15,456 nt of DNA from Actinomycetota bacterium (lineage in GTDB: Bacteria; Actinomycetota; Actinomycetes; Mycobacteriales; Micromonosporaceae): the NCBI GenBank assembly GCA_005885115.1, contig VAXX01000113.1:1-15456 (forward strand), written 5' to 3'. A model generated the notes under the pieces. That model had not been told where the DNA came from and made no database searches. It saw only the letters and a program-made list of their open reading frames with translations. Shown piece after piece: positions 1,783 through 15,456 of this stretch (position 1 is the stretch's first letter; every line of letters starts with the position of its first letter). The translations under genes and the position numbers were made by a program.

Positions 1783-4323
1783 ATGTCCGCAGGGCCGCGC
1801 AGGCTATCGAGATTGTTCCAGAAGGTCCGTAGCCGGCGGGGGCTCGCGCTGGTCACCGCCGCCGCCGTGGCGCTGGTCGGGGCCCAGATAGCCGCCGCGA
1901 CCATCGCGTCGGCCGCCGACCCGTTGATCTCCCAGGGCAAGCCGGTACTGGCCTCCAGCGAGGGCGGTACCGCCTACGTGGCGAAGAACGCCGTCGACGG
2001 CAGCACCACCACCCGGTGGGCCAGCGTCTCCCACGTCGATCCCCAGTGGATCCGGATCGACCTGGGCGCGAAGCTGAACATCAGCAAGGTGGAGCTGGTG
2101 TGGGACCTGTCCTGCGCCAAGGCGTACCAGATCCAGGTGTCCAGCGACGGGACGACCTTCAGCACCGCGTTCAGCACCACCACCGGCGCGGGCGGGACCG
2201 AGGACATCACCGTCAAGGCCACCGGCCGGTACGTGCGGATGTTCGGCACCGTACGCTGCCGGGACTCGGGCTACTCGCTGCAGGAGTTCAAGGTGTACGG
2301 CGGCCCGGTCACCTCGCCGAGCCCGTCGCACAGCCCCTCGCCGAGCCCCTCGGCCGCCGGCAATGCCGTGGACGGCAGCACCGCGACCAGTTGGACCAGC
2401 GTGTCCGGCGTCGACCCGCAGTGGCTGCGGGTCGACCTCGGCGCCGGGTACCAGGTCAGCAAGGTGACCCTGGTCTGGGGCGCGGCCTGTGCCAAGGCGT
2501 ACCAGATCCAGGTGTCCGACGACGGCCAGACCTTCACCAACGTCTTCCTCACCACCTCGGCCAGCGGCGGTACGGAGAACCTCCCGCTCCAGGCCACCGG
2601 CCGGTACGTGCGGATGTTCGGCACCCAGCGGTGCAGTACGGCCGGCTACTCGGTCGTCGAGTTCAAGGTGTACGGCGTCGTCGCGCCGGTACCGAAGTGG
2701 CTGTCCAAGGGCAAGCCGGTGCTCTCCTCCGGCGACTTCGACACCGCCCACCCGGCGACCAACGCGGTCGACGGCAACACCACGACGGCGTGGCAGAGCA
2801 ACGTCTCCACCCCCGACAACGACCAGCCGCAGTGGGTCCGGGTCGACCTCGGCGCGGTATACCAGCTCTACAAGGTGCAGACCATCTGGGCCGACCCGCT
2901 GTGCTCGGCGGTGTACCGGATCCAGGTGTCCGACAACGACGTGGACTACAGCGACGAGTTCCAGAACCTGTCCGGCGCGGGCGGCACCGAGACGGTGTAC
3001 CTCAACGCCACCGGCCGGTACGTCCGGCTGTGGAACACCACGCCGTGCGGCACCAACACAAACATCGGGGTCAACGAGCTCAAGGTGTACGGCACCCCGC
3101 CGGTACCCGTCCCCGCGGTCGGTTCCATCTCGATCGGGAACCAGAACGGCGCGTTCCTCGCCGACTCGTACGGCGGCCTCTCGTACGGCATCGAGCAGCT
3201 CGGCCGGAACATCAACGCCGGCAACTACGCCCAGTACCTCAAGACCCTCGGCACCGGCGTGATGCGCTGGGGCGGCTCCACCGACGAGAACCTCTGGTGG
3301 ACCTCGACCAACGAGCCGATGCCGACCTGGGCGGAGTTCACCCTGACCCCGGCCCACCTGCAGAAGCTGAACACACTCGCGGTGAACACCGGCTGGAAGG
3401 TGATCCTCGGGGTCAACCTCAAGCGCGGTGACGCGGCGCGGGCCGCCGACGAGGCCAAGTTCGCCAAGCAGATCCTCGGTCCGTCGGTCGGCCGGGTCGC
3501 GGCGGGCGACGTGTTCCTCAAGGACTTCACCAGCCGCCAGCTCGGGCACTCCGACGTGGCGGTCCTCGCCTCGCACTTCTACCCGTCGTGCTCCCGTTCG
3601 GCCAGCAACGGGAAGATCAGCATCCCGACCCTGCTGTCGATGGACTGGCACAACCGGGAGCGGCTGCGCGCCGACCTGGTCGCCAGCCTCGCGGCGCAGT
3701 TGCAGGTACCGGGCATGATCACCGAGACGAACTCGGTGTCCTGCACGGGCCTCGCGGGCGTGAGCGACGTGTTCGCCGCCGCACTGTGGGGCGTCGACGA
3801 GATGATGTCGGTGGCCGAGGCCGGCAACGCCGGCATCAACCTGCACGGCGACCTCGGCACCTGCGACTCGCCGTTCTACAGCCCACTGTGCGCCCTGACC
3901 AAGCAGGACGACGCGGTGCTCAAGCTGACCGCGCGCCCGGTGTACTACGCCGAGCTGCTGACCCAGACCGTCGGTACCGGCTTCTTCCAGCCGGTGTCGA
4001 ACAACGCCACCTCGGTCGTGCGGGCGTACGCGATCCGCAACGGCACCCGGCTGCGGCTGGTCCTGGTCAACGTCAGCGACCCGGCCACCAGCACGGCGTA
4101 CCCGGTGAACATCAGCCTCGGCGGGGCGTTCACCCATGGTGACTTCTACCGGCTCAGCGGCCCCTCGCTGGACGCGACCACCGGCATCACCCTGGGCGGC
4201 AAGGCGATGAACGCCGACGGCACCTTCGCCGGCCCCACCCACACCGCACTCACGGTGAAGGGCAGCACCCTGTCGCTGAACCTGCCCGCGGGCAGCGCCA
4301 CGGTCGTCACCCTCACCCCCTGA
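1783..4323 (+). CDS. Secreted protein: three CBM32/discoidin-like modules plus GH79-like domain lacking the acid/base region
   Basis: 846-residue exported protein. ATG at 1783 follows GGGAGGG (1771-1777). A signal peptide with an RSRRG basic end and a hydrophobic core ends near residue 44 (IASA/AD). Three F5/8 type C (CBM32-like) modules follow: about 48-173, 191-297 and 305-440. Each has NAVDG, W, PQW(I/L/V)R(I/V)DLG and GRYVR signatures. A Ser-Pro linker (176-190) lies between modules 1 and 2. Residues of about 446-846 resemble GH79 (heparanase/beta-glucuronidase type): MRWGGSTDE, GWKVILGVNL, ASHFYPSC, then ITETNSVSC with probable nucleophile E648, and GVSDVFAAALW. The strand that normally carries the acid/base glutamate (NEP after the LGP helix) is missing: LGPSVG (565-570) jumps almost directly to GDVFLKDF. 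Module 2 also lacks its first strands. The frame is intact, so a protein is probably made, perhaps a sugar-binding protein without hydrolysis. Natural target unknown; uronic-acid-containing glycans are an inference. Confidence 0.85.
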   Translation: MSAGPRRLSRLFQKVRSRRGLALVTAAAVALVGAQIAAATIASAADPLISQGKPVLASSEGGTAYVAKNAVDGSTTTRWASVSHVDPQWIRIDLGAKLNISKVELVWDLSCAKAYQIQVSSDGTTFSTAFSTTTGAGGTEDITVKATGRYVRMFGTVRCRDSGYSLQEFKVYGGPVTSPSPSHSPSPSPSAAGNAVDGSTATSWTSVSGVDPQWLRVDLGAGYQVSKVTLVWGAACAKAYQIQVSDDGQTFTNVFLTTSASGGTENLPLQATGRYVRMFGTQRCSTAGYSVVEFKVYGVVAPVPKWLSKGKPVLSSGDFDTAHPATNAVDGNTTTAWQSNVSTPDNDQPQWVRVDLGAVYQLYKVQTIWADPLCSAVYRIQVSDNDVDYSDEFQNLSGAGGTETVYLNATGRYVRLWNTTPCGTNTNIGVNELKVYGTPPVPVPAVGSISIGNQNGAFLADSYGGLSYGIEQLGRNINAGNYAQYLKTLGTGVMRWGGSTDENLWWTSTNEPMPTWAEFTLTPAHLQKLNTLAVNTGWKVILGVNLKRGDAARAADEAKFAKQILGPSVGRVAAGDVFLKDFTSRQLGHSDVAVLASHFYPSCSRSASNGKISIPTLLSMDWHNRERLRADLVASLAAQLQVPGMITETNSVSCTGLAGVSDVFAAALWGVDEMMSVAEAGNAGINLHGDLGTCDSPFYSPLCALTKQDDAVLKLTARPVYYAELLTQTVGTGFFQPVSNNATSVVRAYAIRNGTRLRLVLVNVSDPATSTAYPVNISLGGAFTHGDFYRLSGPSLDATTGITLGGKAMNADGTFAGPTHTALTVKGSTLSLNLPAGSATVVTLTP
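2116..2625 (+). repeat. Internal direct repeat between CBM modules 1 and 2 (period 375 bp)
   Basis: Module 2 repeats module 1 at an offset of exactly 375 bp (125 codons). Exact DNA matches include 2116-2142 with 2491-2517 (27 bp, encoding AKAYQIQVS) and 2216-2250 with 2591-2625 (35 bp, encoding ATGRYVRMFGT). Module 3 is more diverged. The identity shows a fairly recent module duplication and gives substrate for recombination or assembly collapse. Confidence 0.85.
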
Positions 4324-4387: not shown

Positions 4388-4409
4388 TTCCATGCGCGCG
4401 GGTGCATTT

Positions 4410-4432
4410 GATAATGGAACCGGTTTTCGTTA
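4410..4432 (+). promoter_or_regulatory. Importer operon promoter -10 overlapped by a Zur-like palindrome
   Basis: GATAAT (4410-4415) is a near-perfect -10 box. Overlapping it, 4412-4432 is a 21-bp imperfect palindrome centred on G4422. Seven of ten pairs match in the pattern TAAnGnAAnC-G-GnTTnCnTTA. This fits the general form of actinobacterial Zur (Fur-family) boxes, which resemble TGAAAACGGTTTTCA. Binding here would block RNA polymerase. The -35 is weak (TTCCAT at 4388-4393). Transcription would begin roughly 20 nt before the ATG at 4444, giving a very short leader. Confidence 0.6.
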
Positions 4433-4443
4433 ACGTCTTGAGT

Positions 4444-5367
4444 ATGTCCCCGATCGTCCGATCCCGCTGGGTCGCCGCCGCCGCCGCGGCCCTCGCGCTC
4501 GCGCTGACCGGCTGCTCCACGAAACCGACCACCGCCGCGAACGGCTCCGGCACGGTCACCGTGGTCGCCGCCGAGAACTTCTGGGGGAGCCTCGCCGAGC
4601 AGCTCGGCGGCGCGCACGCCAGGGTCACCAGCATCATCGACAACCCGGACGCCGACCCGCACGACTACGAGGCCACCGCCGCGGACGGCCGGGCGGTCGC
4701 CGCTGCGGGGCTGGTTCTGGTCAACGGGGTCGGCTACGACGCCTGGGCGGACAAGCTGGTCGCGGCGAACCCGTCCAGCACCCGGACCGTCCTCAACGTG
4801 GGCGACCTGGTCGGGGTCAAGGAGGGCGACAACCCCCACCGGTGGTACAACCCCGCGAACGTCCGCACGGTGATCGACCGGATCACCGCCGACTACAAGA
4901 GGCTCGACCCGGTCGACGCCGCGTTCTTCGACCACCAGCACGACACGGTGCTGAGGACCAACCTCAAGGGGTACGCCGACGCGATCGACCGGATCAGGGC
5001 GACGTACGCGGGTACCCCGGTCGGGGCCTCGGAGTCGATCTTCGCGATGCTCGCCCCGGCGCTCGGGCTCACCCTGCTGACCCCCGCGTCGTTCCTCACC
5101 GCGATCAGCGAGGGCACCGACCCGACCGCCGCGGACAAGGCCACCATCGACGCCCAGATCAGGACCAGACAGATCCGGGTGTACGTCTACAACAGCCAGA
5201 ACGCCACGCCCGACGTGCAGGCGCAGGTCAACGAGGCCCGGCAGGCCGGGATCGCGGTCACCACGATCACCGAGACGCTGACCCCGGCCGGCGCCTCGTT
5301 CCAGGACTGGCAGGTGGCCCAGCTCGCCGCGTTGGAACGGGCGCTGGCCCAGGCGACCGTAAGGTAG
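4444..5367 (+). CDS. Zinc/manganese-type ABC transporter substrate-binding lipoprotein (ZnuA-like)
   Basis: 307-residue cluster A-I (ZnuA/PsaA-type) metal-binding lipoprotein that would capture a divalent metal outside the membrane and hand it to the permeases. The N-terminus has Arg residues, an Ala-rich core and the lipobox LTGC with C24 as the lipidated cysteine. Likely metal ligands are H73 (DPHDYE), H132 (NPHRWY) and E197 (GASESIF). A fourth acidic ligand is expected near the C-terminal TETLTP. The His-rich loop of Gram-negative ZnuA is absent. An in-frame GTG exists at 4402, but it lies upstream of the -10 box, so ATG 4444 is the start. It is first in the operon, 4 bp before the ATPase gene. 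The Zur-like box favours zinc over manganese, but the metal is inferred. Confidence 0.9.
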   Translation: MSPIVRSRWVAAAAAALALALTGCSTKPTTAANGSGTVTVVAAENFWGSLAEQLGGAHARVTSIIDNPDADPHDYEATAADGRAVAAAGLVLVNGVGYDAWADKLVAANPSSTRTVLNVGDLVGVKEGDNPHRWYNPANVRTVIDRITADYKRLDPVDAAFFDHQHDTVLRTNLKGYADAIDRIRATYAGTPVGASESIFAMLAPALGLTLLTPASFLTAISEGTDPTAADKATIDAQIRTRQIRVYVYNSQNATPDVQAQVNEARQAGIAVTTITETLTPAGASFQDWQVAQLAALERALAQATVR

Positions 5368-5371
5368 CCAC

Positions 5372-6259
5372 ATGTCGACCGCCCCACGCCAGAGCGCCGC
5401 GACGCGCGTCACCGGTGCCCGGGTACCCGACGAGCCCACCGCCCGTCCGGCCCTGGTGGAGATCGTCGACGCCACCGTCGTGCTCGGTGGTCGTACCGTC
5501 TGGTCCGGGGTCGGCGCCACGATCGCACCCGGCGAGTTCGTGGCCATCCTCGGGCCCAACGGCGTCGGGAAGTCCACGCTGCTCAAGGCGGTCCTTGGCC
5601 TGGTACCGCTGGCCCGGGGCACGGTACGGCTGCTCGGCCGCCCGCCCGGGCAGGCCAACCACGACGTCGGGTACCTGCCGCAGCGACGCAGCTTCGACGC
5701 GTCCCTGCGGATCCGGGGCCTGGACGTGGTACGCCTCGGGCTCGACGGGGACCGGTGGGGCCTGCCGCTGCCGGGTCCCCGCTCCCGGGCCGCCGCCGCC
5801 CGGGTCCGTGAACTGGTTGACCTGGTCGGTGCCGGCGGGTACGCCCACCGGCCGATCGGCCAGCTCTCCGGTGGTGAGCAGCAGCGGCTGCTGATCGCCC
5901 AGGCGCTCGCCCGTCGGCCCCGGCTGCTCATGCTCGACGAGCCGCTGGACAGCCTCGACCTGCCCAACCAGGCCGGGGTGGCCGCCCTGATCAGCCAGAT
6001 CTGCCGCACCGAAGGCGTCGCCGTGATGATCGTCGCGCACGACGTGAACCCGATCCTGAGCTACCTGGACCGGGTGATCTACCTCGGCCAGGGTGGCGCC
6101 GTCTCGGGTACGCCCGGCGAGGTGATCACCGCCGCCACCCTGACCCGGCTGTACGGGACGCCGATCGAGGTGCTGTCCACCTCCGACGGGCGGCTGGTCG
6201 TGGTCGGGCAGCCCGAGGCCCCGGCCCTGCACACCGACCGCCACCCGGAGCACGCGTGA
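5372..6259 (+). CDS. Metal ABC transporter ATPase (ZnuC-like)
   Basis: 295-residue ATP-binding subunit that powers metal import. All ABC motifs are present: Walker A GPNGVGKST (61-69), Q-loop YLPQ with Q104, signature LSGGEQQ (165-171), Walker B LLMLDE (185-190), D-loop DSLD and H-loop H223 (VAHD). The N-terminal 25 residues are a low-complexity extension before the fold begins at ALVEIVDA, so a later start cannot be excluded; ATG at 5372 lies just after the previous stop. The stop overlaps the first permease start (GTGA at 6256-6259), which indicates tight co-translation. Confidence 0.93.
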   Translation: MSTAPRQSAATRVTGARVPDEPTARPALVEIVDATVVLGGRTVWSGVGATIAPGEFVAILGPNGVGKSTLLKAVLGLVPLARGTVRLLGRPPGQANHDVGYLPQRRSFDASLRIRGLDVVRLGLDGDRWGLPLPGPRSRAAAARVRELVDLVGAGGYAHRPIGQLSGGEQQRLLIAQALARRPRLLMLDEPLDSLDLPNQAGVAALISQICRTEGVAVMIVAHDVNPILSYLDRVIYLGQGGAVSGTPGEVITAATLTRLYGTPIEVLSTSDGRLVVVGQPEAPALHTDRHPEHA

Positions 6260-7128
6260 CCGGTACGTTCACCTGGAACCTGCTCGCCGACATCCGGGAC
6301 ATGTGGGCGTACGACGCGATGGTCAACGCGTTCCGGGCCGGCACCATCGTCGCCGTCCTCGCGGCGCTCGTCGGGTGGTTCATGGTGCTGCGCCGGCAGA
6401 GCTTCGCCGGGCACACGCTGGCGCTGGTCGGCTTCCCGGGAGCTGCCGGGGCCGTCTGGCTCGGGCTGTCGGTCACCCTCGGGTACTTCACGTTCTGCCT
6501 GGCCGCGGCCCTGGTGATCGCCGCGCTGCGCACCGGGGGCCGGCGCGGGTACAGCGAGGAGTCCGCCGTCATCGGCACCGTACAGGCGTTCGCGCTGGCC
6601 ACCGGGATGCTGTTCGTCAGCCTGTACAAGGGCTTCCTCAACGGCACCACCGAGCTGCTGTTCGGCGCCTTCACCGGGATCACCGCCGATCAGGTGACCG
6701 TGCTGGCCGGTGTCGCCGTCGTGGTCCTCGCCGTGCTCGCCGTCATCGGCCGGCCGCTGCTGTTCGCGTCGGTCGACACCGATGTGGCGCGCGCCCACGG
6801 CGTACCCTCCCGGGTCCTGGACACGGTGTTCCTGCTGTTGCTGGGCGCCGCGGCCGCCGAGGCCAGCCAGATCACCGGCGCGCTGCTGGTCTTCGCCCTG
6901 CTGGTGCTGCCCCCGGCCACGGCGCAGCTCGTCACCGCCCGGCCCGGTCGGAGCCTGGCCGTATCCGTCGGGCTCGCCGTACTGGTCGTCTGGGTGGCGC
7001 TGTTCGTCGGCTACTACTCGCCGTACCCGATCGGGTTCTGGGTCACCACCACCGCGTTCGGGGCGTACGCGCTGACCTCGGTCCTCACCGGGCGGACCCG
7101 CTCGATCCCGCGACGGGCGGCGGCGTGA
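6256..7128 (+). CDS. Metal ABC transporter permease 1 (ZnuB/ABC-3 family)
   Basis: 290-residue integral membrane subunit of the importer, starting GTG and overlapping the ATPase stop. It shows the ABC-3 family pattern of about eight hydrophobic segments. Recognisable stretches are MVLRRQSFAGHTLALVGFPG near the N-terminus (coupling-loop region), LLFGAFTGIT in the middle, and RPLLFASVDTDVARAHGVP followed by AAEASQITGALLVFALLVLP. Residues FASVD and A-x-x-x-GVP are hallmarks shared with the next gene. The operon has two distinct permeases, so the membrane channel is probably a heterodimer. Confidence 0.92.
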   Translation: MTGTFTWNLLADIRDMWAYDAMVNAFRAGTIVAVLAALVGWFMVLRRQSFAGHTLALVGFPGAAGAVWLGLSVTLGYFTFCLAAALVIAALRTGGRRGYSEESAVIGTVQAFALATGMLFVSLYKGFLNGTTELLFGAFTGITADQVTVLAGVAVVVLAVLAVIGRPLLFASVDTDVARAHGVPSRVLDTVFLLLLGAAAAEASQITGALLVFALLVLPPATAQLVTARPGRSLAVSVGLAVLVVWVALFVGYYSPYPIGFWVTTTAFGAYALTSVLTGRTRSIPRRAAA

Positions 7129-7958
7129 TGCTCGCTCAGCCGTTCATGCAGCACGCCTTCCTCGGCGGTACCGCCGTGGCGCTGGCCGCCGGACTCGTCG
7201 GCTACTTCCTGGTCCTACGGGCCCAGGTGTTCACCGCCGACGCGCTGTCCCACGTCGCCTTCACCGGGGCGCTCGCCGCCCTGGCCGCCGGGCTGGACGC
7301 CCGGCTCGGGCTGTTCGCCATCACGGTCCTGGTCGCGCTCGGCATGGGTACCCTGGGCCGCCAGGCCCGCCCCGACGACGTGGTCATCGGCGGCGTGTTC
7401 GCCTGGGTACTCGGGCTCGGCGTGTTCTTCCTGCGCCTGTACACCAGCACCCGCAGCGGTACCGGCAACGGCTCGGCGGGGGTGAGCGTGCTGTTCGGCT
7501 CGATCCTCGGCCTGTCCGCGTCCCGGGCGCTGACCACCGCGCTGATCGCGCTGCTCGTCTGCGCGGTCCTGGTGGTGATCGCCCGGCCGCTGCTGTTCGC
7601 CAGCGTGGACGAGAACGTCGCCGCCGCCCGTGGCGTACCCGTCCGGCTGCTCGGCTTCGGGTTCCTCGCCCTGGTCGGCACCACGGCGGCGGAGGCCACC
7701 CAGGTCGTCGGCGCCCTGCTGATCCTGGGCCTGCTCGCCGCGCCGGCCGGGGCGGCGAGCAGGCTGACCACCCGCCCGCTGCCGGCTCTGGGCCTGTCCG
7801 CCGCGATCGCGGTGGCCAGCGTCTGGCTCGGGCTCACCGCGAGCTACCTGGTCGCCGTGCCGCCCAGCTTCGCGATCCTGGCCGTCGCCACCCTGTGCTA
7901 CCTCGGCACCGTCGCCGTCCAGCGGCTGCGCCGGGGGTCGGCCGTCCAGCCTGTCTGA
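7128..7958 (+). CDS. Metal ABC transporter permease 2 (ZnuB/ABC-3 family)
   Basis: 276-residue second permease. ATG at 7128 shares its A with the TGA of permease 1 (TGATG), and GTG one codon earlier (7125) is an alternative. It carries the same family landmarks as permease 1: YFLVLRAQVFTADALSHVAF, VLFGSILGLS, RPLLFASVDENVAAARGVP and TTAAEATQVVGALLILGLL. Its 1-to-1 motif correspondence with permease 1 shows an old duplication, and the sequences are now well diverged. The frame is open upstream to 6303 only as a shadow of permease 1. Confidence 0.92.
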   Translation: MLAQPFMQHAFLGGTAVALAAGLVGYFLVLRAQVFTADALSHVAFTGALAALAAGLDARLGLFAITVLVALGMGTLGRQARPDDVVIGGVFAWVLGLGVFFLRLYTSTRSGTGNGSAGVSVLFGSILGLSASRALTTALIALLVCAVLVVIARPLLFASVDENVAAARGVPVRLLGFGFLALVGTTAAEATQVVGALLILGLLAAPAGAASRLTTRPLPALGLSAAIAVASVWLGLTASYLVAVPPSFAILAVATLCYLGTVAVQRLRRGSAVQPV

Positions 7959-7986: not shown

Positions 7987-8024
7987 ACACTGGATGAGGA
8001 TCGGGGCCGGCGACAGGGGGTTGG

Positions 8025-8789
8025 ATGGAACCGGGAGAGGCCTATCTGAGCCTGCTCGACGGGCTGCGCGGCGCCGTGGATTCCGACACCGAACCGCGGC
8101 GCCTGGTCGACCGGGCCGCGGGCCTGCTCGCCGGTCGGGTCGGCTGTCCGGTCCGGGAGGCGCAGAGCCACCTGCTGCGCATCGCCGAGGAGCAGGAGCG
8201 CGACCCGGCCGAGGTGGCCGCCGACGTCCTGGCCATCCTGGACGCGCCGGCCAGCCCCGGTGCGGCGAGCCGGGTACGCGCCGTGGTGCAGGACGCGCTG
8301 CGGCCGCGCCCGGCGGACGTGTTCGGCGTACCGGACGACCGCGAACCGCCGCTGCGCCCCGGTACCGTCCAGGAGATCGTGCACGGCCTCCCCGGGGCGC
8401 ACTCGTGGCTGGTGCCGGTGCGGGACGAGGCCGGCGGGGTGCTCGATTTCGTCACCCAGGCGGCGAGCCCGGAGGCGGTCGACGTGGCCGGCCGGCGGGG
8501 CCCGCACATGGTCGGGGTACGCGTTCTCGACGCGTACCCCACGGTCAAGGGCGGTCCGATCTGGGAGGCGTACCTCCAGACCCTCGCCGACGGGCTGCCC
8601 GCCGGTGCAGCACGGGCGTGGCGACCACGGTCACCACGAGGTTCACCACGAGGGCGAGGACTCCGGCGTACACCGCCGCGGAGGTGTGCAGGCCGAGGTG
8701 GGACAGCGGCCAGGCGGAGCCGCCGAAGTGGGCCCGGAGGACGGTGTGCCCGTCGGCGCCGCCGAGCTGGGGGATCTGGTACAGCATGA
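8025..8789 (+). pseudogene. N-terminal fragment of an ANTAR/PAS sensor phosphatase gene, interrupted at 8601
   Basis: ATG at 8025 follows CAGGGGG. Codons up to 8600 (192 residues) encode the front of a signalling protein. Residues of about 25-72 resemble an ANTAR RNA-binding domain (AQSHLLRIAEEQERDPAEVAADVL). Residues of about 112-190 are PAS-like (WLVPVRDEAGGVLDFVTQAA, GRRGPHMVGVRVLDAYP, WEAYLQTLADG). From 8601 the frame runs into a copy of the symporter gene read in the wrong direction, adding 62 meaningless residues before a stop at 8789. The rest of the expected protein (second PAS, phosphatase, kinase-like domain) resumes at about 9337-9348 in a different frame. I infer that 8025-10965 was one gene. 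If translated, the fragment would be an ANTAR-PAS protein with no output phosphatase. Confidence 0.75.
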
Positions 8790-9347
8790 GCAGGCCGGTG
8801 ATGAGCCCGGCGACCAGGCCGCCGGCCAGTGCCCAGCGGTGCGCCCAGGCGCTGCGCAGGCCGAGGGCGAAGGCGGGCAGGGTCTGCAGGATCAGTACGC
8901 CGCCGACGAGCTGCATGTCGATGGCGAACTGGGTGTTGAACAGCGCGATCACCAGCAGCGCGCCGAGCTTCGTGGTCAGCGAGGCGGTCCGGCTGACCCG
9001 GGCCTCCCGCGCCGGCGTGGCGTCCGGTCGGATGAACACCCGGTAGATGTCGCGGGTGAACAGGTTCGCCGAGCCGATCGACATGATCGCCGCCGGTACC
9101 ATCGCCCCGACCCCGATCGCCGCCAGGGCCAGCCCGCTGGACCAGGCCGGGAAGGCCGAGTCGAGCAGCCGCGGGACGATCGTGTTGCGGTCGCCCCCGA
9201 TGGGCTGTACGCCGGCTGAGATCGCCGCGTACCCGAGCAGCGCGAGGAACCCCAGCATCAGCGTGTAGACCGGCAGGGCCACCAGGTTGCGCTTGATGGT
9301 GTTGCGGTTGCGCGCGGCCAGCGTCCCGGTCAGCGTGTGCGGGTACA
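8601..9347 (-). pseudogene. Inserted 747-bp internal fragment of an SSS symporter gene (copy 1 of direct repeat)
   Basis: This block has no start or stop of its own. On the minus strand it encodes the same segment as codons of about 259-507 of the intact symporter downstream (PHTLTGTLAARNRNTIKRN at one end, VVATPVLHR at the other). It is the same orientation and length as 11143-11889. Positions 8601-9195 are identical to the second copy. The 8 differences all fall at 9196-9303 (9196, 9208, 9217, 9226, 9244, 9271, 9277, 9303); the first seven are third codon positions and the last changes Asp to Asn. It splits the phosphatase gene. No transposase, terminal inverted repeats or target-site duplication is visible. 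Confidence 0.9.
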
Positions 9348-10965
9348 CCGGCTCGGCGGCGGTCTGCTGGTCGGCTGGAACCGGCATGACGAGCAGGCCC
9401 GCCAGGAGGAACGGATCGCGCAGACCGAACGGCTGGGCAACCTGGGCTGGGGCGAATGGGACCTGGTCACCGGCCACGTGGTGTGGTCCGCGGGGCTGTA
9501 CCGGATCTACGAGCGGAACCCGGCCGACGGCCCGTTGTCCACCGACGCGGCGTCCGAGCTGATCCTGCCCGAGGACCAGCCGCTGCGGATCCAGGCGATG
9601 ACCGCGTTCGCGGCCGGCGACACCGCCGACGTGACGTTCCGGATCCGGGTCGGCGAGCGGGTCAAGCACGTCCGCTCGGTGGTGGACGCGGTACGCGACG
9701 CGACCGGGCGCCCGTTGAAGATCTACGGCATCGTCCAGGACGTCACCGCGCGGGAGACCGCCCGGGTACGCCTGGCCGACGTGGAACGGCAGTTGCACGA
9801 GCACCAGCGCACACTCGCCGCCGAGCACCGGATGGCAATGCGGTTGCAGCAGATCATCCTGCCGATCCCGGATGCGCCGGTGGACCTGCCCGGGCTGCGG
9901 GTCGCGGTGCGGTACCTGCCCGCGGAGCGGGCCAGCCAGGTCGGCGGGGACTGGTTCCACGCGGCCGAGGTGGCCGGCGGTGGCGTCCTGCTGGCGGTCG
10001 GTGACGTGGCCGGCCACGGGATCCAGGCCGCGACGACGATGGCGCAGCTCCGGCACGCGCTGGCCGCCCTCGCGGTGACCACCACGAGCGATCCGGCGGC
10101 GCTGCTGGGCCACCTCAACCACTTGCTGTGCGCCGGTGGTGTCGCCGCCGACACGGCGACCGTGGTGATCGCCCGCTACCAGCCGGACAGCCACACCCTG
10201 ACCTGGGCGCTGGCCGGCCATCCGGCGCCGTTGCGCACCCGGGACGGGGTCACCACCGAGCTGCCCCGGCCGCGTGGACCGCTGCTGGGGGTACTCGCGG
10301 ACGCGGAGTACGAGAACGCCTCGATCTCCTTCGAGCCCGGTGACCTGCTGGTGCTCTACACCGACGGGCTGGTCGAGAACCGTACCCAGGGCCTCGGCGA
10401 CGGCCTCGCGCCGGTCATCGCCACCCTCAACCGGATCACCGCGGCGGGTAGCCCGCAGCCCCTGGCCGACCTGCTCGGCCAGTTGCACCGCGCCAACCCC
10501 GACGACGACACCTGCATCCTCGCCGCCCGCCCGCTACCCGGTCGGGTACCCGCGCCACCGACCGACCCGGTGCCGGGACAGCTGTTCCAGCGCGAGTTCG
10601 ACCTCGGTTCGCTGGTACCGCTGCGGCACGACATCACCCGGCACAGCGCCGACGCCGGCCTCGCCGACGCCGAGCTGCACTGGTTCGTCACCGCGGTCAA
10701 CGAGATCATCACCAACGCGGTACGCCACGGTGGCGGCACCGGGCAGGTGGCCCTGTGGATCGAGGATGGCCGGCTGTACTGCCGGGTCGCCGATCAGGGC
10801 CCGGGTATCCCGCTGGCCCGGCAGCGTACCGACGTCCGGCCGGCCCCGGACTCGCTGGGCGGACGTGGGCTCTGGCTGGCCGGGCAGGGCTGCGAATCGG
10901 TGGTCATCGACAGCTCAGCCGCCGGTACCCGGGTGACGCTCTCCACCCTCATCCCCGGTCGGTAG
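9337..10965 (+). CDS. C-terminal part of sensor phosphatase: PAS, PP2C/SpoIIE, HATPase (RsbW-like)
   Basis: 542 codons from a GTG that lies inside the repeat end and has no ribosome binding site, so this is best seen as the back half of the gene begun at 8025. It starts VRVHRLGGGLLVGW, then a linker (RQEERIAQTERLGN), then a PAS domain (LGWGEWDL to GIVQDVTARE, 9440-9755). A coiled-coil-like stretch (RLADVERQLHEHQR) leads to a PP2C/SpoIIE phosphatase with its acidic metal-binding sites: VGGDW (9938-9955), GDVAGHG, YTDGLVE (10356-10375) and DDDTCIL. The C-terminus is a serine-kinase-like ATPase with N-box NEIITNAVRHGG, DQGPGIP and GGRGLWL. Such proteins control sigma factors through anti-sigma antagonists by partner switching (family knowledge). 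The enzymatic parts look intact, but expression without the N-terminal half is doubtful. Confidence 0.85.
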   Translation: MRVHRLGGGLLVGWNRHDEQARQEERIAQTERLGNLGWGEWDLVTGHVVWSAGLYRIYERNPADGPLSTDAASELILPEDQPLRIQAMTAFAAGDTADVTFRIRVGERVKHVRSVVDAVRDATGRPLKIYGIVQDVTARETARVRLADVERQLHEHQRTLAAEHRMAMRLQQIILPIPDAPVDLPGLRVAVRYLPAERASQVGGDWFHAAEVAGGGVLLAVGDVAGHGIQAATTMAQLRHALAALAVTTTSDPAALLGHLNHLLCAGGVAADTATVVIARYQPDSHTLTWALAGHPAPLRTRDGVTTELPRPRGPLLGVLADAEYENASISFEPGDLLVLYTDGLVENRTQGLGDGLAPVIATLNRITAAGSPQPLADLLGQLHRANPDDDTCILAARPLPGRVPAPPTDPVPGQLFQREFDLGSLVPLRHDITRHSADAGLADAELHWFVTAVNEIITNAVRHGGGTGQVALWIEDGRLYCRVADQGPGIPLARQRTDVRPAPDSLGGRGLWLAGQGCESVVIDSSAAGTRVTLSTLIPGR

Positions 10966-10972
10966 CGAACGG

Positions 10973-12664
10973 TCAGACCCGGGTCGGCCGCTCCGCCGCC
11001 GTCCAGGTGCCCATCGACACCGGGTCGGCAGCGGGCAGCCGGGCCCCGTCGAGCAGCTCGGTCATGTGCTGTACGGACGCGTCGCCCTCATCCGCGACGT
11101 AGTGCTCGGGCCGGGTGGCGTCGACGCCGGCCGGTACCCCGAGCCGGTGCAGCACGGGCGTGGCGACCACGGTCACCACGAGGTTCACCACGAGGGCGAG
11201 GACTCCGGCGTACACCGCCGCGGAGGTGTGCAGGCCGAGGTGGGACAGCGGCCAGGCGGAGCCGCCGAAGTGGGCCCGGAGGACGGTGTGCCCGTCGGCG
11301 CCGCCGAGCTGGGGGATCTGGTACAGCATGAGCAGGCCGGTGATGAGCCCGGCGACCAGGCCGCCGGCCAGTGCCCAGCGGTGCGCCCAGGCGCTGCGCA
11401 GGCCGAGGGCGAAGGCGGGCAGGGTCTGCAGGATCAGTACGCCGCCGACGAGCTGCATGTCGATGGCGAACTGGGTGTTGAACAGCGCGATCACCAGCAG
11501 CGCGCCGAGCTTCGTGGTCAGCGAGGCGGTCCGGCTGACCCGGGCCTCCCGCGCCGGCGTGGCGTCCGGTCGGATGAACACCCGGTAGATGTCGCGGGTG
11601 AACAGGTTCGCCGAGCCGATCGACATGATCGCCGCCGGTACCATCGCCCCGACCCCGATCGCCGCCAGGGCCAGCCCGCTGGACCAGGCCGGGAAGGCCG
11701 AGTCGAGCAGCCGCGGGACGATCGTGTTGCGGTCGCCGCCGATGGGCTGCACGCCGGCCGAGATCGCGGCGTACCCGAGCAGCGCCAGGAACCCCAGCAT
11801 CAGCGTGTAGACGGGCAGCGCCACCAGGTTGCGCTTGATGGTGTCGCGGTTGCGCGCGGCCAGCGTCCCGGTCAGCGTGTGCGGGTACAGGAACAGCGCG
11901 AACGCCGAGCCCACCGCGAGGGTGACGTAGCTGAGCTGGCCGGAGGGGGCCAGGGTGAGCCCGTCGGTCAGGTTCGGCGTCGCGGCGAACTTGGCGCCGG
12001 CCGAGTGGAACAGTTCCGCCCAGCCGCCCGAGGTGGTCACCACCATCAGGATTACGCCGAGGACGGTCCACATGATCAGGGCGTCCTTGATGATCGAGAT
12101 CAGCGCCGGCCCGCGCAGGCCGGAGATGAAGGTGTACACCGCCAGTACCGCGAACGCGATGGTCAGCGGCCACGGCCCGGGTACCCCCATGACCCGGAAC
12201 ACCGCCTGGATACCGACCAGTTGCAGCGCGATGTACGGCATGGTGGCCAGGATGCCGGTGGCCGCCACGAGCAGCCCGAGCCCCGGCGAGCCGTACCGGT
12301 TGCGGACGAACTCGGCGGGGGTGACGTACCCGTTGACGTGCGCCACCGACCAGAAGCGGGGGAGCAGCACGAACAGCAGCGGATACAGGATCACCAGGAA
12401 CGGGATCGCGAAGAAGCCCCCGGCGCCGATCCCGTACATCAACGTCGGTATCGCGACGAAGGTGTACGCCGTGTAGATGTCGCCGCTGAGCAGGAACCAG
12501 GTGACCCAGTTGCCGAAGGCGCGCCCGCCCAGCCCCCACTCCTCCAGGGTGTGGATGTTCTGCGGCCGCCGCCACCGGGCGGCGAGGAAGCCGACCACGG
12601 TGACGATCGCGAAGACCCCCGCGAAGACGCTGAACTGTACGTGGTGGGTGGCGAAGGTCGGCAT
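10973..12664 (-). CDS. Sodium:solute symporter (SSS family), monocarboxylate permease type (MctP-like)
   Basis: 563-residue multi-spanning transporter, predicted to take up small organic acids such as acetate, lactate or pyruvate with a cation. Evidence for SSS family: LEEWGLGGRAFGNWVTWFL, GDIYTAYTFVAIP, YVTPAEFVRNRYGS, YPHTLTGTLAARNRDTIKRN and SIGSANLFTRDIYR, across about 13 hydrophobic segments. ATG at 12664 is preceded by GGAG five bases upstream. The frame is open further upstream only because the damaged DUF3311 gene happens to run in frame into it. It is convergent with the phosphatase gene, with 7 bases between stops and no clear terminator. Codons of about 259-507 are duplicated at 8601-9347. 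Substrate is inferred from the family and the DUF3311 neighbour. Confidence 0.88.
   Translation of the reverse strand: MPTFATHHVQFSVFAGVFAIVTVVGFLAARWRRPQNIHTLEEWGLGGRAFGNWVTWFLLSGDIYTAYTFVAIPTLMYGIGAGGFFAIPFLVILYPLLFVLLPRFWSVAHVNGYVTPAEFVRNRYGSPGLGLLVAATGILATMPYIALQLVGIQAVFRVMGVPGPWPLTIAFAVLAVYTFISGLRGPALISIIKDALIMWTVLGVILMVVTTSGGWAELFHSAGAKFAATPNLTDGLTLAPSGQLSYVTLAVGSAFALFLYPHTLTGTLAARNRDTIKRNLVALPVYTLMLGFLALLGYAAISAGVQPIGGDRNTIVPRLLDSAFPAWSSGLALAAIGVGAMVPAAIMSIGSANLFTRDIYRVFIRPDATPAREARVSRTASLTTKLGALLVIALFNTQFAIDMQLVGGVLILQTLPAFALGLRSAWAHRWALAGGLVAGLITGLLMLYQIPQLGGADGHTVLRAHFGGSAWPLSHLGLHTSAAVYAGVLALVVNLVVTVVATPVLHRLGVPAGVDATRPEHYVADEGDASVQHMTELLDGARLPAADPVSMGTWTAAERPTRV
11143..11889. repeat. 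Copy 2 of 747-bp direct repeat, within the intact symporter gene
   Basis: Source-like copy of the block at 8601-9347, same orientation, constant offset 2542 bp, 739 of 747 bases identical. Outside the block the two loci share nothing: CCC versus CGA on the left edge, and C versus G at the first base on the right. Here the block is an uninterrupted part of the symporter coding sequence. Confidence 0.95.
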
Positions 12665-12665
12665 G

Positions 12666-12964
12666 TCAGCTCCGCTTCCGGGTGGCCAGGTAGACGATCC
12701 CGATGACGCCAGGGCCACCGGTACGAGCAGCAGCCAGTGCCAGGCGGAGGCGTCGGCGAGCCGGGACCGGCCGGGGGCGGCCGGATGGGTCCACCGGGGC
12801 GGCTCCTCGGCCCGGTGGTGCGCCGGCCGGTGGGACACGCCGTTGTGCCGGTACGCGCCGTTGGTGGGGAACCGACCGTGGTACGTCGTCCCGGCCCCGG
12901 GTGCCGGCCGGTACCCCTGGTGCCACTCCTGGTGCTGACCCCGCTCAACCGGTTTCTCGAACAC
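12666..12964 (-). pseudogene. Damaged DUF3311 small membrane protein gene (internal deletion with frameshift)
   Basis: DUF3311 proteins (two short membrane helices) are commonly encoded just before MctP-like symporters. Coding character starts near GTG 12964. It gives a His/Tyr-rich disordered N-terminus (QHQEWHQGYRPAP, YRHNGVSHRPAHHRAEEPP) and then the first helix WHWLLLVPVAL. The expected loop and second helix are absent. A second frame supplies only the usual C-terminus, GVIGIVYLATRKRS, with its TGA at 12666, one base before the symporter ATG. So about 30-35 residues appear deleted near 12705-12712, with a frameshift. As written, the first frame instead reads through without a stop into the symporter, giving a possible 663-residue fusion from 12964. 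The exact start is uncertain. Confidence 0.65.
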
Positions 12965-13351
12965 GGTGCACAAGCTGCCCGCCCCGCGTGGGCGCGGGCA
13001 ATCGGCCCGTACCGAATCGGCGCTCAACGCGCCGGCCAGCGCGACCAACGGCACGGCGCCCGGCCCAGCGGTCGCACCGCGTGGTCGTCCGATCGGTCAT
13101 TCCCGGGTCATCGGTTCCGTCGGTGTTGTTCCGGACCGCGGAGCGAAGTGTTGCGAAGCGGTATCAGAATCCGTGTCCTGATTACCGGGATCCACCCAGT
13201 TCGTCCCGTCGGACAGGGCGAAAAGTTCGATATTCCACGCGGCCGGGGGACGGTTGATAAATGTCAGGCTGTCTTCCTAACAATAGACGGCCGCGGTCGG
13301 GCGATGCGATAGTAAGCCACTTTTCCCATTACCCCGGAGAACGGCCACCCC
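12965..13351. other. Divergent intergenic region between DUF3311 and the malectin-like gene
   Basis: 387 bases with lower GC toward the right-hand end. It holds a plausible plus-strand promoter (13254-13283) and GGAGA (13336-13340), 11 bases before the ATG at 13352. It also has a direct repeat GCGAAG at 13143-13148 and 13153-13158, spaced one helical turn. I see no convincing minus-strand promoter and no believable small gene; the short ORFs here have no recognisable content. Confidence 0.5.
13254..13283 (+). promoter_or_regulatory. Putative promoter of the malectin-like secreted protein gene
   Basis: TTGATA (13254-13259) is separated by 18 bases from TAACAA (13278-13283), a reasonable sigma70-type pair in the only AT-richer stretch upstream. 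It would give a leader of about 60 nt. This is based on motif inspection only. Confidence 0.4.
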
Positions 13352-15456
13352 ATGAACCGGTACACCCGTGTCGCCGCTGTGTCCGCCGTGCTGGCGCTGG
13401 CGCTCGGTGGGATGAGCGCGGCCCACGCGCAGACGCCCACGCCGATCGCCGCCATCAACTTCCAGCCGGCCGCCTCACCCGTGCCCGCCGGGTACACCGC
13501 GGACACCGGCGCCGCCTTCGACGCCACCCGGGGGTACGGCTGGGTCCGGCAGGACAGCGTCGCCTCGGCCAGCCACGTGCCGCTGGACCTGACCCGCAAC
13601 ACCCGGGACCGGGCCCGGGCCGGGATCGACCAGCGGCTGAACACGATCATCCACATGCAGTACGGCGACTCCCCGCCGCCGTTGACCAAGGGTGAGGCCA
13701 CGCCGGGCGCCTGGGAGTACGCGGTCCCGGCCGGCCGGTACACGGTCACGGTGTCCCGTCGCGGTGACCGACGGTCGGCTGACCGTCGACGCCATCGGCG
13801 GTACCAACACCAAGCTCAACTACGTCCAGATCACCAAGGTGGCCGACGACACCACGCCGCCGGCCACCCCGACCGGACTGACCGCCGCCGGCGGCGACAG
13901 CCAGGTCACCCTGTCCTGGACCGCGAACACCGACGCGGACCTGCTCGGGTACCGGGTCTACCGGCCGGCGGGTACGTTGATCTCCGGCGCCGCCCTGGTC
14001 ACCCGGCCCGGCTTCGTGGACACCACGGCGGTCGACGGGACGGCGTACAGCTACGTGGTGACGGCGGTCGACTCCTCGGGCAACGAGTCGCCCGCGTCGG
14101 GTCCGGCCAGCGCGACGCCGGCCGCGTTCGCGCTCAAGGTGAACTTCGCCGACCAGGCCACGGCCGCCCCGGCCGGGTACGTGGCGGACTTCGGCGAGGC
14201 GTACGGGGCGCACGCCAACGGGTTCACGTACGGCTGGCTCCAGTTCGGTACCACCACTCCGGTCAGCCTGGTCGGCAACGGCCGCAACCGGGGCGCGGCC
14301 AGCGACCCCGACGTGCGCCTGGCCACCTTCGTCCACGCGCAGCTTCCGGCGACCACCGCCGGTGTGCACACGCCCGGCACCTGGGAGCTGGCCGTCCCGA
14401 ACGGCGCCTACACGGTGACCGTCGCGGTGGGCGATGCCGGTACCGCGGTCAACAGCACCAACTACGTCAACGTCGAGGACCAGAACGCGATCGCCGCGTT
14501 CGTCCCCACCGCGTCGGTCAAGCACGCGACGGTGACCCGCACGGTGACCGTGACCGACGGCAACCTGACCGTGAGCCCGGCCTCCGGCACCAACACGAAG
14601 TTCGACTACGTCGACGTGGCCAGCGTGCCCGGCAGCGCCACCATCCCCTCGGTCCGCACCAGTACGCCGACCAACCTGGCGGTCAACGTCAGCACCACCG
14701 GCAGCGTCGTGGAGGACCTGCGGCTGCCCTCCGGCGGCGTGGACGCCTCGACCCTGACCTCGACCAGCGTCACGCTGACCAAGGTGGCGGACGGGACGGC
14801 GGTCGCCGCCAACGTGATCACCAGCGGCGGCGGCGACGTCATCAACCTGTCGCCGACCGCGCCGCTGGCCCCGAACACGCTGTACCGCTTCGCCGTGACC
14901 TCGGCGGTACGCGACGTCAACGGGCACGCGTTCGCGCCGTACTCGATGGTGTTCACCACCGGCGCCACCGGTAGCCAGAGCGGGCCGGCCGCGTTCGAGA
15001 AGGCGGTGTCCGGCGCGGTGACCGCGATGTACACCAGCGTGGTCAAGGGGCCGGACGGCCGGCTGTACGCGGCCACCCTGGACGGGCACATCTACCGGTA
15101 CCCGATCAACCCCGACGGTACCCTGGCCACCCCGACCGTGATCGACACCGTGCGTACCCACGCCAGCGCGGCCGGCCTGGCCGGTGCCCCGAACCGGACC
15201 ATCGTCGGCCTGGCGTTCGACCCGGCCGCCACGCCGGCCAACCCGATCCTGTGGATCAGCGACAACTACGAGTTCGTCGGCACCTTCGACGTACCCGACT
15301 ACTCCAGCCACCTCGCCAAGCTGACCGGTCCGGACCTGTCCACGTACACCGACGTGGTCACCAACCTGCCCCGGTCGGTCAAGGACCACGAGACGAACTC
15401 GATCGCGTTCGGCCCGGACGGTGCGCTGTACTTCGCCCAGGGCGCCAACAACGCGA
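13352..15456 (+). pseudogene. Secreted malectin-like/FN3/malectin-like/Ig-like/propeller protein, frameshifted near 13756, 3' end outside window
   Basis: ATG 13352 starts a signal peptide (RYTRVAAVSAVLALALGG, cleavage near AHA/Q). Frame 1 runs to about 13756 and encodes malectin-like domain 1 (INFQPAASPVPAGYTADTG to GRYTVTVS). From 13758 a different frame continues without a stop to the window end: VAVTDGRLTVDAIGGTNTK, then FN3 (13848-14115, TPPATPTGLTAAGG), malectin-like domain 2 (14128-14625), a Big_5-like Ig domain (14640-14962), and the start of a beta-propeller resembling PQQ-type sugar dehydrogenases (from 14990; GPDGRLYAATLDGHIYR, SIAFGPDGALYFAQG). Compared with domain 2, domain 1 lacks about 39 residues at the shift, so this is a deletion plus frameshift, not a single-base error. 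Frame 1 alone would continue to an irrelevant stop at 14974. Likely an extracellular carbohydrate-binding oxidoreductase; substrate unknown. Confidence 0.8.

What the first reader, a model, noticed from the sequence alone, without database searches (positions are those of the whole stretch)
8601..9347. Sensor phosphatase gene split by a fragment of a neighbouring transporter gene
A 747-bp block that has no start, stop, transposase or terminal repeats interrupts what reads as one ANTAR-PAS-PAS-SpoIIE-HATPase gene, and its sequence matches an internal part of the symporter 2.5 kb downstream. The right junction falls in an 11-bp match (GTGCGGGTACA) that fits both genes' coding frames: VRVHRL for the phosphatase, the symporter on the other strand. 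About 20-25 phosphatase codons seem to be lost as well, judging by family shape (inference). This looks like a templated insertion at microhomology, or a misjoined assembly.
Basis: partly seen in the sequence, partly recalled or inferred. Interest (0 to 1): 0.75.

Follow-up and report, generated by a model that had tools for sequence, protein, structure and literature searches.

The report
Phosphatase gene split by copied symporter fragment
In this draft genome a sensor phosphatase gene is broken by a 747-base copy of a piece of its neighbour, most likely because the draft was stitched together wrongly from mixed strains, although a genuine DNA-repair scar cannot be ruled out.

Summary
8601-9347 is a direct copy of 11143-11889 (747 bp, 8 mismatches), an internal piece of an SSF symporter gene, inside an ANTAR/PAS/SpoIIE/HATPase phosphatase gene. 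An intact allele on another contig (P0005, 756 aa) shows 22 codons (193-214) replaced. The right junction shares 11 bp; the left none.

The two copies thus look like alleles of different strains; which one is foreign is not settled.

The draft has 607 contigs and is 77.7% complete. A sample of it (77 readable contigs, 490 kb) holds a second neighbour-fragment replacement and a 462-bp tandem copy; control sequence (869 kb) holds no near-identical copy above 142 bp. The window has another out-of-frame loss of about 39 codons near 13757.

I favour a local assembly error with strain mixing (0.60). The rival is real capture of nearby DNA at a double-strand break, as reported in Streptomyces; Ku is present. 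Reads would decide.

The parts
8025..8600 (+). N-terminal piece of the phosphatase gene (192 native codons; ANTAR domain)
   Evidence: 190/192 identity to residues 1-192 of P0005; ANTAR 27.7 bits in ORF 8025-8789, cut-off 27.3
8601..9347 (+). Copied block: internal piece of the symporter gene (codons 259-508), antisense to the phosphatase
   Evidence: 747 bp, 8 mismatches to 11143-11889; codon range
8787..8789 (+). Stop codon met by the phosphatase frame inside the block
   Evidence: end of ORF 8025-8789
9196..9303 (+). The 8 mismatches to the symporter copy: 7 silent in the symporter frame, 1 D274N
9337..9347 (+). 11-bp sequence shared by block end and phosphatase codons from 215 on (GTGCGGGTACA)
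   Evidence: VRVHRL matches P0005 residues 215-220
9337..10965 (+). C-terminal piece of the phosphatase gene (PAS fold, SpoIIE phosphatase, HATPase); opens with a possible GTG start
   Evidence: 538/542 identity to P0005 215-756; SpoIIE 159.7 bits, HATPase_c_2 54.8 bits, PAS_3 20.6 bits under its cut-off of 25.6
10973..12664 (-). Intact sodium:solute symporter gene (SSF, 563 aa from ATG)
   Evidence: PF00474 74.7 bits on ORF 10973-13054; 5 differences to P0125
11143..11889 (+). The matching stretch inside the symporter gene (donor-like copy)

Best explanation
Most likely the block is a local assembly error in a metagenome-type draft that mixes strains of one actinobacterium. The true phosphatase gene is continuous, as in the P0005 allele. 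At a short stretch (about 66 bp) where assembly failed, reads or a short contig of a symporter allele, 2.5 kb away, were placed between the two halves and closed on the right over an 11-bp chance overlap. SHOWN: the copy, its 8 clustered mismatches, the intact allele on another contig, a second lesion of the same kind in the same draft, and a frame break in the same window. INFERRED: that no DNA molecule carries the join, that the genome is a metagenome bin, that strains are mixed in the contig, and which step of the assembly made the join.
For: The genome is a 607-contig, 77.7% complete draft; 10 of 77 readable sampled contigs hold N runs of assorted lengths, 3-293, which look like scaffold gaps though withheld stretches also read N. 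An intact allele exists: P0005, 99% identical, 10 member sequences. The chimeric 254-aa ORF was found on this contig alone, among the 7993 candidates scored. The 8 mismatches are confined to the last 152 bp (about 6e-6 if uniform, a stretch chosen after seeing it), 7 of 8 are in third codon positions of the symporter (0.0026), and D274N gives the residue of P0125 on an 8831-bp contig. Those are differences between working symporter genes, not decay after insertion. The draft sample (490 kb) has a second replacement of gene sequence by a neighbour's fragment: 196 bp at L165 9513-9708, like 7999-8194, where a related gene has about 86 codons of its own. It also has a 462-bp tandem copy (L104). 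Controls, a single-contig genome (400 kb) and 52 loci of named strains (469 kb), have no copy of 96% identity or more above 142 bp. The same window has an out-of-frame loss near 13757. Chen et al. (PMC7111523; section 9 and passages read) describe local joins without read support, suspected to be most prominent in IDBA-UD assemblies, and artificial repetition of stretches of hundreds of bases.
Against: No reads or coverage were available, and the window contains no N. Joins of 11 and 0 bp are too short for an ordinary k-mer graph join, so a gap-closing or overlap step has to be assumed. The 595 bp identical between the copies did not break the contig. The difference between drafts and controls is small: 3 near-identical copies of 190 bp or more in 662 kb (G000 and G001 samples) against 0 in 869 kb; the 52 control loci all lie around one gene and are no random sample. 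The sampled N gaps were not seen to be flanked by such copies. Which copy is the foreign allele is open: over the 8 sites G001 has the copy-1 base at 4, the copy-2 base at 2 and neither at 2, and residue 274 is variable in the family, so a change at the native symporter after a real insertion fits too.
Confidence: 0.6

Rival explanations
1. A real scar: a double-strand break in the phosphatase gene was trimmed by about 66 bp and healed by end joining (Ku/LigD type) or replication template switching, which captured 747 bp from the nearby symporter gene. The strain has lost the full-length phosphatase. The symporter gene was later partly replaced by another strain's allele, or the captured DNA came from such an allele.
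For: Deletion plus insertion of nearby DNA, with microhomology, is a scar type reported in Streptomyces ambofaciens: three Kan-sensitive clones had DNA inserted at the scar, of 42 and 83 bp from close by and 30 bp from a transposase gene in the chromosome ends; the discussion counts 5 insertions of 30 bp to 18.8 kb (PMC5869714, section 5 and passages). A Ku gene is present (G000:C368, E 3.1e-54). 11-bp match at the right junction. At 4 of the 8 sites copy 1, not the native symporter, has the base of G001, as expected if the native gene changed later.
Against: No change of the kind expected after insertion is seen in the block; all 8 differences suit a working symporter, so a further recombination step is needed. 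The closest relatives are intact at this place (42 of 53 loci) and the chimeric ORF was seen once. A second such scar in about 14% of the draft (L165) would mean an unusual rate. In that study microhomologies at scars were 1-6 nt in half of the cases; here 11 and 0.
Confidence: 0.35
2. A chimera made in the test tube during DNA amplification (multiple displacement amplification or PCR) before sequencing.
For: Such chimeras join segments at short complementarity, up to 21 bp (PMC1855051, passages), and the genome could be an amplified low-input sample (inference).
Against: In that study direct-orientation joins under 10 kb were 11 of 475 chimeras; here two joins, both direct, would be needed. 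It does not explain the 8 clustered differences.
Confidence: 0.04
3. A mobile element or a selected regulatory insertion.
For: None beyond a block inside a gene.
Against: No transposase-like frame was recognised in the block; no inverted arms of 25 nt or more and no exact inverted match above 4 nt in its end 40 bases; flanking duplication 2 nt at most. The content is an internal symporter piece, and apart from the symporter the held draft shows only a 70% paralog and three matches of 29-36 bp.
Confidence: 0.01

Closest known systems
Local assembly errors and artificial repetition in metagenome-assembled genomes (Chen et al. 2020, PMC7111523)
   Same: Wrong sequence inside a contig that breaks genes; repeats of hundreds of bases; co-occurring strains as a cause of trouble
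   Different: That paper identifies them by lack of read support, which could not be tested here; a neighbour fragment closing a gap is not described in the parts I read
End-joining scars with captured DNA in Streptomyces ambofaciens (Hoff et al. 2018, PMC5869714)
   Same: Deletion at the site, insertion from nearby DNA of the same genome, microhomology, Ku present
   Different: Here the insert is 747 bp (the two local cases there: 42 and 83 bp), it differs from the present donor at 8 sites, and shared sequence is 11 and 0 bp
ANTAR/PAS/SpoIIE/HATPase phosphatases of Micromonosporaceae and related actinobacteria
   Same: The two pieces together correspond to an ordinary member (P0005)
   Different: Broken here after codon 192

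Membership tests
Local assembly error (metagenome draft) | Region lacks support by reads | not testable with these tools
   No reads held
Local assembly error (metagenome draft) | An intact version of the region exists in a near-identical gene elsewhere | tested here: met
   P0005, 99% identical, continuous; compatible with a strain difference too
Local assembly error (metagenome draft) | Similar lesions elsewhere in the same draft, rarer in controls | tested here: inconclusive
   2 in 490 kb of G000 (L104, L165), 1 in 172 kb of G001 (L221), 0 of that size in 869 kb of controls; small numbers. Rows under 96% identity were not counted: L119 (363 bp, 86.5%), L176 (palindromic, 86.6%), G004 L203 (148 bp, 88.5%)
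Strain-composite contig | Copies carry alleles of different strains | tested here: inconclusive
   8 clustered differences, 7 silent, D274N as in P0125; but only one residue is matched, at a family-variable site, and in the left part copy 1 agrees with the window symporter, not with P0125 (I441, L445, V461)
End-joining capture of nearby DNA | Loss of native sequence at the join | tested here: met
   22 codons lost against P0005
End-joining capture of nearby DNA | Insert identical to a donor in the same genome | tested here: not met
   595 bp identical, then 8 mismatches in 152 bp
End-joining capture of nearby DNA | Ku present | tested here: met
   PF02735 at G000:C368, 184.7 bits; LigD not searched
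End-joining capture of nearby DNA | Short microhomology at junctions | tested here: inconclusive
   11 bp right; 0 bp left, inferred from residue R193 of P0005 and the mismatch 8600/11142
Transposable element | Transposase and terminal inverted repeats | tested here: not met
MDA chimera | Mostly inverted joins of segments under 10 kb apart | tested here: not met
   Both joins are in direct orientation; direct joins under 10 kb were 11 of 475 in the reference study
ANTAR/PAS/SpoIIE/HATPase phosphatase | ANTAR, PAS, SpoIIE and HATPase domains in one reading frame | tested here: not met
   Domains lie in two separate ORFs; together in P0005, whose ANTAR score is under the Pfam cut-off

The most novel reading that the evidence does not exclude
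The block is real and is one of several recent scars in this lineage, in which breaks inside genes are filled with a few hundred bases copied from the next-door gene in direct orientation (window block and L165). That would make natural, non-transposon gene interruption by local DNA capture visible at strain level in an uncultured actinobacterium.
Probability: 0.27. Interest if true: 0.5.

Novelty: not a real feature. Interest (0 to 1): 0.13.

Why it matters
If it is an assembly error, the record implies a truncated 254-aa protein and a separate 542-aa phosphatase that do not exist, and a simple repeat scan would flag similar lesions in other drafts. If it is real, it is a natural example of local DNA capture at a break in an uncultured actinobacterium.

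Tried and rejected
Tried: a transposon or mobile element (nothing recognised). A paralog as donor: the other symporter that this search found in the held draft is 70% identical (C144), so it is not the source. Decay after insertion as the cause of the mismatches: rejected because 7 of 8 are silent in the symporter frame and the eighth gives a residue found in P0125. Calling copy 1 plainly the foreign copy: dropped on checking, because G001 has the copy-1 base at 4 of 8 sites, the copy-2 base at 2 and neither at 2, and residue 274 is variable (N in 3, D in 8 of the 100 of 120 listed symporters in which a simple motif placed it; S in G001). Tandem duplication followed by deletion can also give this arrangement on paper; nothing seen here speaks for it over a single event. 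MDA chimera: unlikely from orientation. A search for relatives of the L104 protein gave little (4 of 21 genomes), so whether its tandem copy is native stays open. Literature searches on templated insertions, break repair in Streptomyces, amplification chimeras and metagenome misassembly gave the three papers cited; no search was made for this locus by name.

Full report
What is there. The window is the whole of contig C177 of a draft genome with 3,469,911 bases in 607 contigs, 77.74% complete and 0.79% contaminated. Bases 8601-9347 repeat 11143-11889 in direct orientation: 747 bp without gaps, 8 mismatches. The second stretch lies inside a 563-aa SSF symporter gene on the minus strand (12664-10973; PF00474) and covers its codons 259-508. 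The first stretch lies between two pieces of a phosphatase gene.

The broken gene. P0005, a 756-aa protein on another contig (source ENA, 4910 bp, 10 member sequences), matches the left piece at 190 of 192 residues and the right piece at 538 of 542, and is continuous. Between them it has 22 residues (193-214) that the window lacks. The G001 ortholog is continuous across that place, with 66 bp between the two matches; it changes frame later, ahead of its HATPase part. Of 53 GTDB loci found with the C-terminal piece, 42 align in one stretch across residues 192-215; 11 do not, 3 for lack of any hit and 8 because alignment starts at about residue 228 or later. In the window the left frame runs 62 foreign codons into the block and stops at 8787-8789. 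ANTAR remains on the left and SpoIIE plus HATPase on the right. The loss lies ahead of the PAS fold that Pfam sees in P0005 (262-354); a first PAS domain before it is inference.

Junctions. On the right, GTGCGGGTACA (9337-9347) belongs to both genes, and the next base differs (9348 C, 11890 G). On the left, base 8600 differs from 11142, and the native codon 193 encodes R in P0005, so its first base is C or A while the block has G. The left join therefore has no shared base, assuming this strain also has R there (inference). The block has no inverted arms of 25 nt or more, no exact inverted match above 4 nt within its end 40 bases and a flanking duplication of 2 nt at most.

The mismatches. All 8 lie in 9196-9303, none in the first 595 bp. 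Spread evenly, all 8 in one terminal 152-bp stretch has a probability of about 6e-6 (the stretch was chosen after seeing it); 7 or more of 8 in third codon positions has 0.0026. Seven are silent in the symporter; the eighth is D274N. The window's intact symporter has D, as have P0126 and P0127; P0128 has A and P0130 has G. P0125, a 99% identical symporter on another contig (10 members, 8831 bp, source not shown), has N. In the 120 listed symporters a simple motif placed this residue in 100: N in 3, D in 8, mostly A or G; G001 has S. In the left part copy 1 agrees with the window's symporter and not with P0125 at three residues (441, 445, 461), so P0125 is not the full source. At the 8 sites G001 has the copy-1 base at 4, the copy-2 base at 2 and neither at 2. 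The two copies thus look like alleles of different strains, but which of them is the foreign one is not settled.

How common such lesions are. I sampled 100 of 607 contigs at fixed number steps; 23, all under 3000 bases, read as N throughout and 77 were readable, 490,456 bases. They hold two direct copies of 190 bp or more at 96% identity or more. L104 has a 462-bp tandem repetition. L165 has 196 bp of the 5' part of one gene (7999-8194) standing at 9513-9708 inside the next gene, with 1 mismatch. A related gene in the same draft (60-63% identical; C184, L229) has about 86 codons of its own where L165 has about 62-65 copied ones. This looks like the same kind of lesion as the finding. The same scan gave one tandem copy (L221) in 171,681 readable bases of G001. 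In 400,000 bases of the single-contig genome G004 and 469,206 bases of 52 GTDB loci of named strains around phosphatase relatives it gave no copy above 142 bp. Copies below 96% identity were not counted (L119 363 bp at 86.5%, a palindromic stretch in L176, G004 L203 148 bp at 88.5%). The shorter rows are palindromes of 40-44 bp in G000, G004 and the 52 loci, and short-period arrays in G004. These numbers are suggestive, not conclusive. Ten of the 77 contigs contain shorter runs of N, 3 to 293 bases; they look like scaffold gaps, but withheld stretches also read N.

A second lesion in the window. The gene from 13352 to the window's end has two repeats of a domain of about 168 residues. In the first repeat the frame changes at 13757, and about 39 codons that the second repeat has are missing. 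Two broken genes in one 15-kb contig speak for a poor assembly, although strain-level mutation is possible.

Explanation. I put 0.60 on a local assembly error with strain mixing. It accounts for the clustered allele differences, the intact gene elsewhere, the chimeric ORF seen on this contig only (1 member; 7993 candidates scored), the second neighbour-fragment lesion and the frame break at 13757. Chen et al. (PMC7111523, section 9 read in full and other passages) describe local joins without read support, suspected to be most prominent in IDBA-UD assemblies, artificial repetition over hundreds of bases, and trouble from co-occurring strains. That this genome is a metagenome bin, and which step made the join, is inference. 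I recall, without a call, that some scaffolders merge ends over about 10 bp, which would fit the 11-bp overlap.

The rival at 0.35 is real capture of nearby DNA at a break. Hoff et al. (PMC5869714, section 5 read in full and other passages) found in Streptomyces ambofaciens, after I-SceI cuts, scars with microhomology of 1-6 nt in half of the cases and three clones with inserted DNA, of 42 and 83 bp from close by and 30 bp from a transposase gene; their discussion counts five insertions of 30 bp to 18.8 kb. G000 has Ku. Against it stand the clustered allele differences, which need a further recombination step at the symporter gene or another allele as donor, and the absence of any post-insertion type of change. 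A test-tube chimera is unlikely: direct joins under 10 kb were 11 of 475 in Lasken and Stockwell (PMC1855051, passages).

Verdict. It is more likely than not no feature of any cell. Only reads can settle this; none were available.

Noticed in passing
window 13352-15456, break near 13757: A secreted two-repeat protein gene changes frame at 13757 and its first repeat lacks about 39 codons present in the second: another broken gene in the same contig.
   Followed up: partly
L165 (G000:C210) 9513-9708 and 7999-8194: 196 bp of the 5' part of one gene (long YD/RHS-like frame, label recalled) stands inside the neighbouring gene in place of its own sequence, the same kind of lesion as the finding.
   Followed up: yes
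L104 (G000:C195) 196-1134: In-frame tandem repetition of 462 bp, with 3 mismatches at one edge only, in a membrane protein gene.
   Followed up: partly
L221 (G001:C160) 5992-6678: 336-bp-period tandem copy with 4 mismatches in the same-genus draft.
   Followed up: no
L022 (G001:C176) about 4193-4264: The G001 phosphatase ortholog changes frame ahead of its HATPase part.
   Followed up: no
P0011 (protein): A 509-aa relative of the same phosphatase joins about residue 146 to residue 235, skipping the very region that is broken here; possibly another assembly error at the same place.
   Followed up: no
window 1783-4323: Protein with three F5/8 type C domains and a glycosyl hydrolase family 79 C-terminal domain; its internal repeats of 74-81% identity are ordinary domain repeats.
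   Followed up: no
window 4402-7957: Metal-uptake ABC genes: ZnuA-like binding protein, ATPase and an ABC-3 permease by Pfam, followed by a second similar membrane frame that was not scanned (searches failed).
   Followed up: no
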